A stretch of 64,000 bases of DNA from Citreicoccus inhibens. GTDB taxonomy: Bacteria > Myxococcota > Myxococcia > Myxococcales > Myxococcaceae. The stretch lies in contig NZ_JAHNZT010000004.1 of NCBI RefSeq assembly GCF_019039035.1, forward strand, positions 186,001 through 250,000, in the 5' to 3' direction. Shown one piece after another: positions 43,105-48,324 of this stretch (position 1 is the first letter of the stretch; every line of letters begins with the position of its first letter). Both the position numbers and the translations under genes were made by a program. Under the pieces are notes generated by a model. The model had not been told where the DNA came from. It was given only the letters and a program-made list of their open reading frames with translations, and did no database searches.

Positions 43105-44403
43105 TCAGGTCGAGATCCGAAGCACCGGCAGGCCCGCGTAGTGGTCGACGACATCGCGCCCGATGCGCGCGATGTAGCCATCAGGGCGAACGAGCACCTT
43201 CGAGTCCCCGCGCGACAGCAACGTCGCCCCGGGATGACGGAGCACATCGAAGACACGCTGCCCATTGGGCAATCGCCCATCCGGCATGCGGTCACCGGGG
43301 TGAAGCTCGCCCACGGGTGCGCCCGACGAGAGAGCACTCTCCCGATAATGAAGCCCGAGCTGATTCGTCAGAGCGCCGCGCTTGAGCGAGCGATTCACAT
43401 ACAACGTGCGACTCAGGTTCAAGACAGCAGCGGCAACAGGGAGTCGCTCGGCCTGATAGCTGTCGAGAATCGAGTCCGGGCCGCCACGCAGTGCCCATGC
43501 GAGCTTCCACCCAAGATTCCACGCATCCTGAACACCCGTGTTGAGCCCTTGGCCGCCCGTGGGCGGATGCAGATGCGCCGCATCACCCGCGAGGAAAACG
43601 CGCCCCCCCCGATAGCGCTGCACCATGCGAGCCTGCGGGGTGTAGCTCGATGACGTGAGCACCTCGGTGACGCGGCACTTGCTGACGGACTCAATGAGTC
43701 CCGCCACGTCCTCCACCTTGGCGCACGTCACCTGGAAGAAATCGGAGTGCGGCATCGGGCACAGCCCGAGCATGCCGCCTCGAGCCCAGGGCCAGACATG
43801 CCAGTCCTCGCGAGACAACCCCTCGACCTTCACATCGCCGACGAGCAGCGTCTTGTCCTCCACGGTGGAGCCCACCAGCCCGAACCCCAGCGCCTTGCGG
43901 ACGGCGCTCCGTCCCCCATCGCAGCCCACGAGATAGGCACACCGGACGAGCACACCCTCCGAGAGCGCCACCTCGACCCCGTCGTCGCGCTGGACGAACG
44001 ACTCGAAGCGGCGGCCGTACTCCACTGAGACGCCCAATTCGGCGAGGCGCGCGCGGAGCACGCCTTCCGTCTTGAACTGCGGCACTTGCAGCAGGTTGGG
44101 ATACGGCGTCGCCGCAGTAGGCGCGTGACGAGTCCCGAGCGAGCCGCCGCGAAAACTGAACGGACCGAAGTGGAAGCGCAGGCGCTGGTAGAGACCACCC
44201 GCCTTCGCAATCTCGGGCATCACCCCAAGCAGGTCGAAGATCTCCTGAGTGCGAGGCTGAATCCCCTTCCCGCGAGAGCCACGGGAAGGCTCCACGGCCG
44301 CATCGACGATGCGCACCCTCACGCCCCGCCGAGCCAGGTCCACGGCGAGCGTCAGCCCCGTAGGCCCCGCGCCGACGATGAGCACCTCTTGTTCGTACAC
44401 CAT
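43105..44403 (-). CDS. FAD-dependent aromatic-type monooxygenase
   Basis: The product has 432 residues of the flavoprotein hydroxylase group (PheA/PHBH family). It has the FAD-binding GxGxxG in LIVGAGPTGLTLAVDLA, the DG motif YLVGCDGGRSAVRKALG and the GD motif VFLAGDAAHLHPPTGGQGLN. It should hydroxylate an aromatic or polyketide-like compound with NAD(P)H and O2. The ATG at 44403 (MVYEQEVLIVG) is preferred because GAGG lies nine bases upstream; two other ATGs lie 9 and 15 bases further up. It is divergent from a TetR regulator with only about 21 bp between start codons. Confidence 0.9.
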   Translation of the reverse strand: MVYEQEVLIVGAGPTGLTLAVDLARRGVRVRIVDAAVEPSRGSRGKGIQPRTQEIFDLLGVMPEIAKAGGLYQRLRFHFGPFSFRGGSLGTRHAPTAATPYPNLLQVPQFKTEGVLRARLAELGVSVEYGRRFESFVQRDDGVEVALSEGVLVRCAYLVGCDGGRSAVRKALGFGLVGSTVEDKTLLVGDVKVEGLSREDWHVWPWARGGMLGLCPMPHSDFFQVTCAKVEDVAGLIESVSKCRVTEVLTSSSYTPQARMVQRYRGGRVFLAGDAAHLHPPTGGQGLNTGVQDAWNLGWKLAWALRGGPDSILDSYQAERLPVAAAVLNLSRTLYVNRSLKRGALTNQLGLHYRESALSSGAPVGELHPGDRMPDGRLPNGQRVFDVLRHPGATLLSRGDSKVLVRPDGYIARIGRDVVDHYAGLPVLRIST

Positions 44404-44431
44404 ACGAATCATCCTCATCGTACGATGTACG
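44392..44431. promoter_or_regulatory. Nested palindromes in the monooxygenase-TetR divergent region
   Basis: Three inverted repeats are packed here: TTCGTA-N5-TACGAA (44392-44408), CATCGTACGATG (44416-44427) and CGTAC-gat-GTACG (44419-44431). They cover both start codons and share a TACG core, as expected for a TetR operator that shuts down both promoters. Confidence 0.6.
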
Positions 44432-45114
44432 GAATGCAAGGACGGTCGAAGAAGCGAGCGAGGAAGCAGGAGGCGACCCAGTCCATCTGGACACGCGAGG
44501 AGCCAGGCGCAAGGCAGCCCAAGCTCTCGCGAGCGAAGATTGCGGAGGCGGCCATCGCCATCGCGGACACCGAGGGCTTCGACGCGGTGAGCATGCGAAG
44601 CGTCGCTCAGCGACTCGGAGGCTCGACGATGAGCCTCTACTACTACGTGAAGACCCGAGCCGAGCTGTTGGCCCTGATGGACGACGCGTTGATGGGGGAG
44701 CTGTTGCTGCCCACTGTGAGCAAGAAGGGCCCACAAGCCCTCCTCGACATCGCGCTCGGCACGGCAGAGATGTTGCGGAGACACCCCTGGGCACTGGTGG
44801 CGATGCGAGGAGCGCCGCCAGGCCCCAACGCGCTCCGCCACGCGGAGCAGTGTCTAGAAACCCTGGCCGAAACAAAGCTCTCCGCGAAGGAGAAGCTGAC
44901 GCTATTGGCGATGGTGGACGACTATGTCTTCGGCCACGCCCTCCGAGAAGCCGAAACACAGACCCCAACGGACGAAGCCCTCGCCAAGAAGTTGCTGGCG
45001 ACAGGAGACTTCCCAAGGCTCGAAGAGACCTTCCGCCACGGCAAGCCAACCCCCGACCCCAAGCGCCTCCGCCGAGGACTCGAAGCCCTCATCCGACTGT
45101 CCCTCCCAATCTGA
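44425..45114 (+). CDS. TetR-family transcriptional regulator
   Basis: The product has 229 residues. A basic N-terminal arm (KKRARKQ) precedes the TetR helix-turn-helix (LSRAKIAEAAIAIADTEGFD and MRSVAQRLGGSTMSLYYYV, about 33-82). A helical ligand domain of the TetR_C type follows. The divergent flavin monooxygenase is the likely target, and a drug- or aromatic-like ligand the likely inducer (inference). The ATG at 44425 has no Shine-Dalgarno and lies inside a palindrome. A leaderless transcript or the ATG at 44434 are alternatives. AT-rich sequence begins after its stop. Confidence 0.88.
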   Translation: MYGMQGRSKKRARKQEATQSIWTREEPGARQPKLSRAKIAEAAIAIADTEGFDAVSMRSVAQRLGGSTMSLYYYVKTRAELLALMDDALMGELLLPTVSKKGPQALLDIALGTAEMLRRHPWALVAMRGAPPGPNALRHAEQCLETLAETKLSAKEKLTLLAMVDDYVFGHALREAETQTPTDEALAKKLLATGDFPRLEETFRHGKPTPDPKRLRRGLEALIRLSLPI

Positions 45115-45865: not shown

Positions 45866-47152
45866 TCAAAAATCAGGGAAGAAGCTCCTCACCGCACCTG
45901 AATCATCAAGATACCCCCGCATCCTAATGCCTTCTGGAGTTGTCCCGGACCATTCACGAGAAAGACGCCCCTCAGCCTGCGCCTCTGCCGCTGCCTGTCT
46001 ACCCCACTGCAGATACTGCTCATTCGAAATCACCTTCGGGTCATAAACCGTCTTCTCGAATATTTTCGCCTTCCACGTTCCCGCTGGCTGTCCAGCAGCA
46101 TCCAGTGCGGCCACTTGATAGTGTACTCGCTGAACGCCCTGGATAGTCGGGTGAGCCTCCGTCTTCACAATATTAATCTCCTTCGAATACTTCATAAACT
46201 CTTCAAGGCTATGCGCCCCGCCAATCCCTTTCTTGCGGTCGACAGCAAAGTCTCTTTCAATAATATGTTTTTCATAGTCCGCACGAATACGAACAAATCC
46301 CCTTCCGGCAAGACTGAAATCACTCGACTCTCGCGCAGCACGGCTTTCGTTCAGGTTCGCCAGCAACCGCTCTCTCATCGCGTGCTGTTCGAAATTACTG
46401 GCCTCTCGTGCAGCGCGACTCTCCGCCAAGCTAGATAGAATTCGCTCACGCGGGGAGAGAGCTAGTCGCGCCTCAGCAAGCAATGCCTCCCGAGCCATCA
46501 CAGCACGGTATGACTGCCGAGAGTAACCCAACATAACAAGGTTGAAACCCGTCAGCCCGCACGACATCGTGGCCCCATCGTCCCTGGAGATGTCGTCCCC
46601 ACACTTGTAGGCAATTACAAAAGTATTCGCCATCCCCAGCGCGCTAGCCGTTACCGGATCGACAATCTGTTGATCACCCGGGTTGTGGCCCTTGGAACTG
46701 AGGAGGGAGACCCCAGCCCAAACCATCATCCCGGTCTTTGACAGAAACGCAGGGGAAGTGACAGCTGCTATGTAGCCTGTCTTGATGGCGCATGCAGTCT
46801 CACTCCCAGCGACGCAATCATCCCGCATTGCAGCGAAACCAGCGTTCAGGCAACTACTAGGCCCCCCAGCACACGCATTCTGGAGGTCTGGCGGCAGGAA
46901 CTGATTGCCGTACCCATCATTCGCTGCCCGGCCATCCGGGTCCGTGTACCGAAGCGGATTGACGTGGGCATAAGTCCAGGGATGCAACCCAATGGGGTTC
47001 TGAAGAAGTTTCTGGCGCTGGAGAATGTCGCCAAGCAACGGGTCCTCCGAGAGGAACCGGCCAGTGCCGGCGTCATACCAGCGCGCAAAGACAGACAGCG
47101 GCATCAGCAACAGCAGCGCTACTAGCCAACGGGCTCCTACTACACGCCTCAC
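45866..47152 (-). CDS. Exported mini-RHS protein with C-terminal EndoU/CdiA-CT-like toxin
   Basis: The product has 428 residues. Residues 1-24 form a Sec signal peptide ending SVFA, joined directly to the last fragment of an RHS core (RWYDAGTGRFLSEDP at about 25-39 and YAHVNPLRYTDPDGRA at about 61-76). A linker with hydrophobic segments follows, then a two-copy 22-residue repeat (about 233-281). The C-terminal domain (about 285-428) has His296 in YEKHIIER, His314 in GGAHSLEEF, and EKTVYDPKVISNEQYLQWG and GYLDDSGAVRSFFPDF near the end. This is the pattern of EndoU-like/CdiA-CT nuclease toxins. The large RHS shell is missing. The GTG at 47152 overlaps the upstream stop (GTGA) and follows GGAGGAGG. 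An ATG at 47197 is less likely. Confidence 0.75.
   Translation of the reverse strand: MRRVVGARWLVALLLLMPLSVFARWYDAGTGRFLSEDPLLGDILQRQKLLQNPIGLHPWTYAHVNPLRYTDPDGRAANDGYGNQFLPPDLQNACAGGPSSCLNAGFAAMRDDCVAGSETACAIKTGYIAAVTSPAFLSKTGMMVWAGVSLLSSKGHNPGDQQIVDPVTASALGMANTFVIAYKCGDDISRDDGATMSCGLTGFNLVMLGYSRQSYRAVMAREALLAEARLALSPRERILSSLAESRAAREASNFEQHAMRERLLANLNESRAARESSDFSLAGRGFVRIRADYEKHIIERDFAVDRKKGIGGAHSLEEFMKYSKEINIVKTEAHPTIQGVQRVHYQVAALDAAGQPAGTWKAKIFEKTVYDPKVISNEQYLQWGRQAAAEAQAEGRLSREWSGTTPEGIRMRGYLDDSGAVRSFFPDF
46375..46453 (-). repeat. First copy of a duplicated 22-residue coding repeat
   Basis: Within the mini-RHS toxin gene, the segment encoding RERILSSLAESRAAREASNF is followed about 26 codons later by a second copy reading RERLLANLNESRAARESSDF. 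Both predict charged helices just before the toxin domain. Confidence 0.6.
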
Positions 47153-48324
47153 TTGCCTCCTCCTTCGTCCAGGTCCAACGGCTGAAGTTTTGCGCATTTA
47201 TTACCAGGCGCGGGGCCGCAAACGTTTGCACACACACTCAAAACAGACCCAGGGTCTCGTCTGGCACGCTCAAAAAGGAATGGATCTGCCGCGAGTGCAA
47301 ACTGGATAGGTCGCCCCCCCGGATTGAATAGGGAGGAGACATCAAATGGTTCGGGTGGCGGCTTCTTGGCCCCCACCTCGGTGCCTCCCATTTTGGACAC
47401 CCTTGTCCAGTAATCCTGAACCAAGGGATGTGGAGCGCCTAGCCGAGTAGCTTTCTGACTGTAGACCAAGGCGCGGCGTGCATCATCCTTCACCCTGGGC
47501 GTCTTGTGGGGAGGAATCCTCCCACCCGGCGATTGGACAGACACCCGCATGGCCGCCAGATAATTAAAGACCAATGCCAGGTTCCAATTCGCCGTAATGC
47601 TGCGCGGATGAACCGTAAGGGCCAACTCGGACAGACGCGCTCCAAGCCCCACGTTCCAGTCATTCACGAGACGCGCGGCTACTTCAGCAATGAGCGCCCC
47701 TAGAAGCTCTCTCTTGGAAAGAGAGCGCATCATGGCGCCAGAGGAGACCGCCTCTGACGGGACTTCCAAGTCTTGGATGATGCGCTCGTCACTTGCCTCG
47801 CCCCCGCCGGAGGTGGCCTCGATGTTGGAGCGGTACGAGCCCTCCTGGTAGCGCAGGAAGAAGTGCTGCGGAGCTTCCACGATGGCCACCGGATAGTCCA
47901 GACGCTCCGCCACCACGAACCAGAGGACAGGCAGCGAGACACAGTTGCCCTTCTTCGTGGCCAACAGCCGCCACAGCGACGAAGCGTCAAGCCGCCGCCC
48001 CATTGGGTCGTCTTTGTCGTAGGTGAAGCCATTCTCCCGGAAGAGGACTTGGTTGATGGCGCGGATGCGGTAATCCGGGTCCGTCCGGGAGCCCACCAGG
48101 GTACGCACCTGTCCCGCCAGCAAATCGATACGCCGCCGCCCCTCAACAACGTCCGTGTCAGCGTCCACGAAGGTACCCAAGCGCAGTGCTGCATCACCGA
48201 TGTTGAGCCTGTCCTCCGGAAGCGAGAGCAGTGCCCGGACCACGTGCACCATCGGCGGCTCCTCGGACGCCATCGCTGGCAACGAGAAAAGTAGGACTAC
48301 GGCGAGAATACGCGCTCGGGCCAT
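47149..48324 (-). CDS. Exported transglutaminase-like (SirB1-type) protein
   Basis: The product has 391 residues. It has a Sec signal peptide (AVVLLFSLPAMA, about 8-19). The central domain has the papain-like Cys in KKGNCVSLPVLWFVVAERL and the His in VEAPQHFFLRYQEG, as in SirB1/transglutaminase-core2 proteins. The C-terminal part has TPR-like helices and a Cys-rich tail (SVCANVCGPAPGNKC). Whether it crosslinks, cleaves or only binds proteins is unknown. GGAG precedes the ATG at 48324 by five bases. Its stop codon is part of the GTGA that starts the mini-RHS toxin gene, so the two are translationally coupled, and it may assist export or maturation of the toxin (inference). Confidence 0.75.
   Translation of the reverse strand: MARARILAVVLLFSLPAMASEEPPMVHVVRALLSLPEDRLNIGDAALRLGTFVDADTDVVEGRRRIDLLAGQVRTLVGSRTDPDYRIRAINQVLFRENGFTYDKDDPMGRRLDASSLWRLLATKKGNCVSLPVLWFVVAERLDYPVAIVEAPQHFFLRYQEGSYRSNIEATSGGGEASDERIIQDLEVPSEAVSSGAMMRSLSKRELLGALIAEVAARLVNDWNVGLGARLSELALTVHPRSITANWNLALVFNYLAAMRVSVQSPGGRIPPHKTPRVKDDARRALVYSQKATRLGAPHPLVQDYWTRVSKMGGTEVGAKKPPPEPFDVSSLFNPGGRPIQFALAADPFLFERARRDPGSVLSVCANVCGPAPGNKCAKLQPLDLDEGGGK

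What the first reader, a model, noticed from the sequence alone, without database searches (positions are those of the whole stretch)
44392..44431. Three overlapping TACG palindromes fill the 21-bp gap between a flavin monooxygenase and TetR
Start codons only about 21 bp apart leave no room for two standard promoters plus leaders. The palindromes cover both starts, suggesting leaderless or overlapping divergent transcription with the operator inside the coding starts.
Basis: partly seen in the sequence, partly recalled or inferred. Interest (0 to 1): 0.52.

Follow-up and report, generated by a model that had tools for sequence, protein, structure and literature searches.

The report
Operators overlapping two divergent start codons
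A repressor gene and the enzyme gene it probably controls are read in opposite directions from about 40 bases of DNA that appear to hold two repressor-binding sites, the promoters and both start codons, and the same layout recurs in related genes from several bacterial phyla, so it looks like an unusually compact form of a familiar switch.

Summary
The palindromes are real, but they are two operator copies, not three: CGTAYNNNRTACG at 44394-44406 and 44419-44431, 25 bp apart; the 9.05-Mb genome has only four such sites. They separate a flavin monooxygenase gene (FMO, minus strand) from a SimR-like TetR gene. I compared 20 related loci from four phyla (not all independent). In 20 of 20 the tetR start lies 2-3 nt after the second operator, a TAnnnT box ends 6-7 nt before that start, and no Shine-Dalgarno motif is seen: the published signature of a leaderless gene. 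Orthologs also place the real tetR start at 44434, so the gap is 30 bp, not 21. In 15 of 18 FMO loci the FMO start codon lies inside the first operator. In 17 of 20 a TTGACA or TTGCCA box for the divergent gene lies antisense over tetR codons 1-3, where synonymous codons are biased. The window's own FMO promoter match is poor and an SD-like GAGG precedes its start, so leaderless FMO is unsettled here. No transcript or binding data. New variant of a known kind.

The parts
44392..44408 (.). Operator 1, TTCGTACACCATACGAA; its centre holds the FMO start (ATG 44403, GTG 44400)
   Evidence: 1 mismatch to TTCGTACNNNGTACGAA; core conserved in 20 of 20 loci, second half GTAC in 16 and ATAC in 4
44417..44433 (.). 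Operator 2, ATCGTACGATGTACGGA; ends directly before the tetR ATG 44434
   Evidence: core GTACNNNGTAC in 20 of 20 loci; 25 bp from operator 1, 24-27 bp in 19 of 20 loci
44421..44426 (+). Proposed tetR -10 element TACGAT, inside operator 2, 7 nt before ATG 44434
   Evidence: TAnnnT 6-7 nt before the tetR start in 20 of 20 loci; T at the last position is not demanded by symmetry (20 of 20 in op2, 9 of 20 in op1)
44434..45114 (+). TetR-family repressor gene (SimR-like, TetR_C_1), start ATG 44434 preferred over ATG 44425
   Evidence: Pfam; SimR 5.8e-28; start by orthologs
43105..44403 (-). Flavin monooxygenase gene, 432 aa, start ATG 44403 (or GTG 44400)
   Evidence: FAD_binding_3 1e-70; PRK06184 486.6 bits; length
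44413..44416 (-). SD-like GAGG before the FMO start, overlapping the place of the -10 box of orthologs (GAGGAT, 44411-44416)
   Evidence: only window and L003 have it, 2 of 18 FMO loci
44434..44439 (-). TTGCAT, at the place where orthologs have the FMO -35 box TTGACA or TTGCCA, antisense to tetR codons 1-2
   Evidence: 3 of 6 matches here; TTGACA in 13 and TTGCCA in 4 of 20 loci

Best explanation
An autoregulated divergent repressor/enzyme switch folded into about 40 bp. Two dimers of the SimR-like TetR protein bind two 17-bp palindromes (TTCGTACNNNGTACGAA type) whose centres are 25 bp apart. Operator 2 contains the -10 element of tetR, and transcription starts at or one base before the tetR ATG (44434), so the repressor mRNA is leaderless and weakly translated. 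Operator 1 contains the FMO start codon. In most relatives the FMO promoter (-35 over tetR codons 1-3 on the other strand, spacer through operator 2, -10 between the operators) would start the FMO mRNA only a few nt before its start codon. The promoters overlap, so RNA polymerase can use one at a time, and bound repressor blocks both. A ligand, perhaps an aromatic compound that the monooxygenase modifies, would release the repressor. Shown by sequence: operators, spacing, start positions, lack of SD, conservation. Inferred: binding, repression, transcript ends, ligand.
For: Operator pair far above chance. Pair kept in 20 of 20 compared loci, spacing 24-27 bp in 19. tetR start 2-3 nt after op2 in 20 of 20, with an in-frame stop just upstream and no other start between in 14 of 20. 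TAnnnT 6-7 nt before it in 20 of 20, control 1 of 27; SD 0 of 20, control 19 of 27. Third centre base of op2 is T in 20 of 20, in op1 in 9 of 20. FMO start inside op1 in 15 of 18. TTGACA/TTGCCA in 17 of 20; TAnnnT 17-18 bp on in 15 of 20, shuffles mean 1.61, largest 8 of 5000. Ser2 TCA 13 of 13 against 9 of 128 elsewhere; Ala2 GCA 4 of 4 against 12 of 151; Arg3 AGR 7 of 7 against 10 of 114. SimR is the nearest solved relative and binds a 17-bp site as a dimer (PMC4150764, passages).
Against: No transcript or binding data. The window's own FMO promoter is poor (TTGCAT 3 of 6, GAGGAT) and an SD-like GAGG precedes the FMO start. No -35 box for tetR is seen in any locus: at most 3 of 6. L004, a 53% relative, has neither operator nor FMO. 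L044, L047 and L048 have FMO starts outside op1. L030 has an ambiguous start. The 20 loci are related, so counts are not independent.
Confidence: 0.7

Rival explanations
1. Only tetR is leaderless in this genus; the FMO has a normal leader with the SD-like GAGG (44413-44416), made from a promoter inside the tetR coding region.
For: GAGG and AGGA lie before the FMO start in window and L003 only, 2 of 18; the orthologous -35/-10 are degenerate there. In L048 the FMO starts well outside op1.
Against: GAGG coincides with the place of the -10 box, so it may be chance; the consensus scan found no other promoter in 44200-44700, though that scan is strict.
Confidence: 0.4
2. tetR starts at ATG 44425 or has a short ordinary leader; its -10 lies in the inter-operator segment and may be shared with the FMO (a bidirectional promoter).
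For: Both ATGs are in frame in window and L003. Hexamers 14 nt before the start average 3.2 matches to TATAAT, the second-best place after 3.4 at 6 nt; L036 has a full TATAAT there.
Against: TAnnnT at 14 nt in only 1 of 20 loci against 18 of 20 at 6 nt; no SD in 20 of 20; orthologs lack any start at the 44425 place.
Confidence: 0.17
3. The palindromes are coding-sequence or chance repeats without regulatory role.
For: Part of op1 encodes the FMO N-terminus, so protein constraint could keep some of it.
Against: Rarity; the same motif precedes TetR relatives without an FMO match beside them (L046, L049, L021, L030, L050).
Confidence: 0.03

Closest known systems
SimR/simX of Streptomyces antibioticus (SimR structures 2y2z, 3zql)
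   Same: Nearest solved relative of the TetR here; divergent target; two operators between the genes; dimer on a 17-bp site (PMC5812520, passages and section 9 part 1; PMC4150764, passages)
   Different: Target is an efflux pump, and the intergenic DNA is 138 bp (PMC3511530, passages). SimR operator letters could not be read here, so sharing of the GTAC half-site is not tested
acuR-acuI-dddL of Rhodobacter sphaeroides
   Same: TetR-family repressor gene with 5' end mapped exactly at its AUG, no SD, operator overlapping the promoter (PMC3017554, section 7)
   Different: Not divergent; the repressor heads the operon; different operator
tetR of Tn1721 and lambda cI, leaderless repressor mRNAs
   Same: Leaderless repressor message, low translation (PMC3017554, passages; reference title in PMC7148126)
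   Different: Divergent partner with start codon inside an operator is not described in what I read
Bidirectional promoters of E. coli (Warman and colleagues)
   Same: Divergent starts a few tens of bp apart (PMC12825309, passages)
   Different: There a shared -10 element serves both strands, with starts most often 18 bp apart, also 10 or 23; here two separate -10 boxes are predicted and start codons are 29-34 bp apart in 15 of 16 listed loci

Membership tests
TetR family, TetR_C_1 (SimR-like) | TetR_N helix-turn-helix and TetR_C_1 ligand domain | tested here: met
   28.2 bits (cut-off 24) and 46.5 bits (cut-off 21); SimR 5.8e-28 over residues 16-172
TetR family, TetR_C_1 (SimR-like) | Ligand-released binding to a palindromic operator | not testable with these tools
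   Palindrome pair present and conserved; binding not measured
Divergent TetR-target repression pair (200-bp rule, PMC3511530) | Divergent neighbour less than 200 bp away | tested here: met
   30 bp between start codons
Leaderless gene (TANNNT about 12 bp upstream of the start, PMC3160421) | TANNNT at about -12 and no SD | tested here: met
   tetR: 20 of 20 loci; control 1 of 27
Leaderless gene (TANNNT about 12 bp upstream of the start, PMC3160421) | Primary transcript begins at the start codon | not testable with these tools
   No RNA data
Bidirectional promoter with shared -10 | One symmetric -10 serving both strands | tested here: inconclusive
   Separate boxes are the better fit: TAnnnT 18 of 20 at 6 nt against 1 of 20 at 14 nt
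Rifampin monooxygenase | Reaches the curated family score | tested here: not met
   231.8 bits against a cut-off of 800 (NF033145); works like a group A flavin hydroxylase by FAD_binding_3

The most novel reading that the evidence does not exclude
The 40-bp segment is a self-contained regulatory cassette that travels with the repressor gene: it brings two operators, two overlapping promoters and both start codons, so that the divergent target (an FMO in most loci, a DrrA-type exporter ATPase in L046) receives its start codon and first residues (MYE) from the repressor's operator, and both mRNAs are leaderless or nearly so.
Probability: 0.4. Interest if true: 0.62.

Novelty: new variant of a known kind. 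Interest (0 to 1): 0.45.

Why it matters
Leaderless repressor genes and overlapping divergent promoters are each known. A conserved unit that superimposes operators, promoters and both start codons would show how far a bacterial switch can be compressed, would make it testable whether a weakly translated leaderless repressor mRNA is selected for, and would supply a short, portable ligand-responsive part. It also warns that start-codon calls next to such operators are easily wrong.

Tried and rejected
The consensus promoter scan at 44200-44700 found nothing; its rule is too strict for these sites, so I did not use it as evidence against them. SimR's operator letters were sought and not found; my memory that they resemble TTCGTAC is not used. 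The paired operator with the tetR ATG was not found in viral contigs (0 stretches). Closest plasmid TetR proteins are under 60% identical in 47 of 47 records, so no recent plasmid copy was seen. The two other genomic CGTAYNNNRTACG sites lie inside the span of long ORFs, so no second target is proposed. Rejected: a tetR start further downstream (no fitting start codon in the orthologs with short N-termini); TTGACA as part of the operator (op1 lacks it in the matching flank). The tree groups the 20 proteins apart from 8 outgroups (99/99) but has many open forks and long outgroup branches; mixing of Acidobacteriota and Pseudomonadota rows is not taken as proof of transfer (several are MAGs). One search prints simple products as p values; I do not use them, because the loci are related. 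Searches for a printed description of such a doubly compact divergent unit: (listings, open-licence papers only); none seen, which is weak evidence.

Full report
What is there. On the minus strand is a 432-aa flavin monooxygenase, FMO (FAD_binding_3 1e-70; NCBIfam PRK06184 486.6 bits, cut-off 476; its best solved relatives are rifampin monooxygenases and polyketide oxygenases). On the plus strand is a TetR-family regulator (TetR_N and TetR_C_1) whose best solved relative is SimR (5.8e-28). The window has 2 such sites against 0.01 expected. The 9.05-Mb genome has 4, the other two inside the span of long ORFs. The pair occurs in 3 of 195 genomes of the phylum, the reversed control in none.

Sample. 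I compared 20 loci: the window, L003 (same genus, 94% identical TetR) and all 18 loci with at least 42% identity (L032-L049), from Myxococcota, Acidobacteriota, Pseudomonadota and Actinomycetota as their titles say. Left out of the counts: L004 (53%; neither operator nor FMO, so a counterexample), the 8 loci L050-L057 with 41% or less, and the distant family hits L005-L031. The 20 TetR proteins form one group against 8 outgroups (99/99). They are not independent: window and L003 are near copies, and L037, L038 and L041 are close.

Operators and starts. Op2 has GTACNNNGTAC in 20 of 20; op1 has it in 16 of 20 and ATAC as second half in 4. Spacing is 24-27 bp in 19 of 20. In Minicystis (L032) the site on the tetR start is 115 bp from op1, with a further site between them. 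The tetR start codon follows the op2 core by 2 nt in 18 loci and 3 nt in 2. In 14 of 20 an in-frame stop lies just upstream with no other start codon between. This supports ATG 44434 in the window and a gap between start codons of 30 bp; it is 29-34 bp in 15 of the 16 loci listed, and 119 bp in L032. The FMO start codon lies inside the op1 core in 15 of 18 FMO loci; L044, L047 and L048 are exceptions.

tetR looks leaderless. A box TAnnnT ends 6 nt (18 loci) or 7 nt (2 loci) before the tetR start in 20 of 20; no other distance up to 30 nt has more than 4. This is the described mark of bacterial leaderless genes (PMC3160421, passages). The T that completes the box is the third centre base of op2, which symmetry does not demand: T in 20 of 20, against 9 of 20 in op1. 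GAGG, GGAG and AGGA are absent from the 20 nt upstream in 20 of 20. As a control, 27 annotated CDS of a Granulicella plasmid stretch had SD in 19 and the box in 1. Two distant relatives with the same operator type, L050 and L062, seem to have ordinary leaders with an SD when read by eye; L030 has several possible starts, one of them close to its operator, and stays open. So the compact form may belong mainly to this group of 20.

The divergent promoter. On the other strand TTGACA (13 of 20) or TTGCCA (4 of 20) lies at a fixed place over tetR codons 1-3; 15 of 20 loci have TAnnnT 17 or 18 bp further on, against a mean of 1.61 and a largest value of 8 in 5000 shuffles of the gap. The tetR codons fit a constraint at DNA level: Ser2 is TCA in 13 of 13 (9 of 128 Ser elsewhere in those genes), Ala2 is GCA in 4 of 4 (12 of 151), Arg3 is AGA or AGG in 7 of 7 (10 of 114). 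A general A-bias of early codons could add to this; the Granulicella control has TCA in 0 of 5 Ser at codon 2, a small number. From the -10 end to the op1 centre codon is 9-11 nt, which would give FMO leaders of a few nt. In the window and L003 this promoter is poor (TTGCAT, GAGGAT) and the GAGG there could be an SD, so the FMO side is open here. For tetR no -35 box is seen in any locus (at most 3 of 6); a TG before the -10 (TGG in 12 of 20) may compensate in many relatives, but not in the window.

A swapped target. In L046 (Conexibacter) the divergent gene is not an FMO but a DrrA-type ABC ATPase (TIGR01188 333.6 bits, cut-off 312.45) next to an ABC-2 permease; its frame opens at an ATG inside op1 and reads MYE like the FMOs. 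Its ABC domain begins only near residue 40, so a later start is possible.

Mechanism. Most likely, repressor dimers on both sites block two overlapping promoters; ligand release lets polymerase take one promoter at a time; the leaderless tetR mRNA keeps repressor low. Low translation of leaderless repressor messages is described for acuR and Tn1721 tetR (PMC3017554, passages and section 7; a title in the reference list of PMC7148126). Binding, repression, ligand and transcript ends are inferred. The ligand as an aromatic compound is a guess from the enzyme class.

Known or new. Divergent TetR-target pairs under 200 bp usually mean repression, and gaps down to 0 bp occur (PMC3511530, passages). 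Leaderless repressors and bidirectional promoters are known. I found no printed case with both start codons inside or against paired operators (listings; open-licence papers only). I call it a new variant of a known kind.

Noticed in passing
L053 2959-2994 (also L052, L054, L055, L056): Distant TetR relatives of Propionibacteriaceae carry a different palindrome (TTCTTACGACGTAAGAT or TTCTTAGTCTGTAAGAT) just before the TetR match, twice in L053 and L054, 19 bp apart.
   Followed up: no
L062 1501-1537: A CGTACNNNGTACG pair, 24 bp apart, between a TetR_C_1 regulator (start 1478, minus) and a 162-aa ORF at 1621 (plus) in another genome of the family.
   Followed up: partly
L032 2873-3004: In Minicystis a third operator copy sits on the GTG start of tetR, 115 bp from op1, as if the tetR module had been moved away from the FMO module.
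   Followed up: partly
L047 2970-3031, L048 2922-2983: Two Actinomycetota loci have three operator copies in a row, with the FMO start outside op1.
   Followed up: no
L046 1036-2945 (minus): A DrrA-type ABC ATPase and an ABC-2 permease replace the FMO beside the same operator pair.
   Followed up: partly
window 45866-47197 (minus): An ORF with an RHS-core-like stretch near its start (motif recalled, no search done).
   Followed up: no
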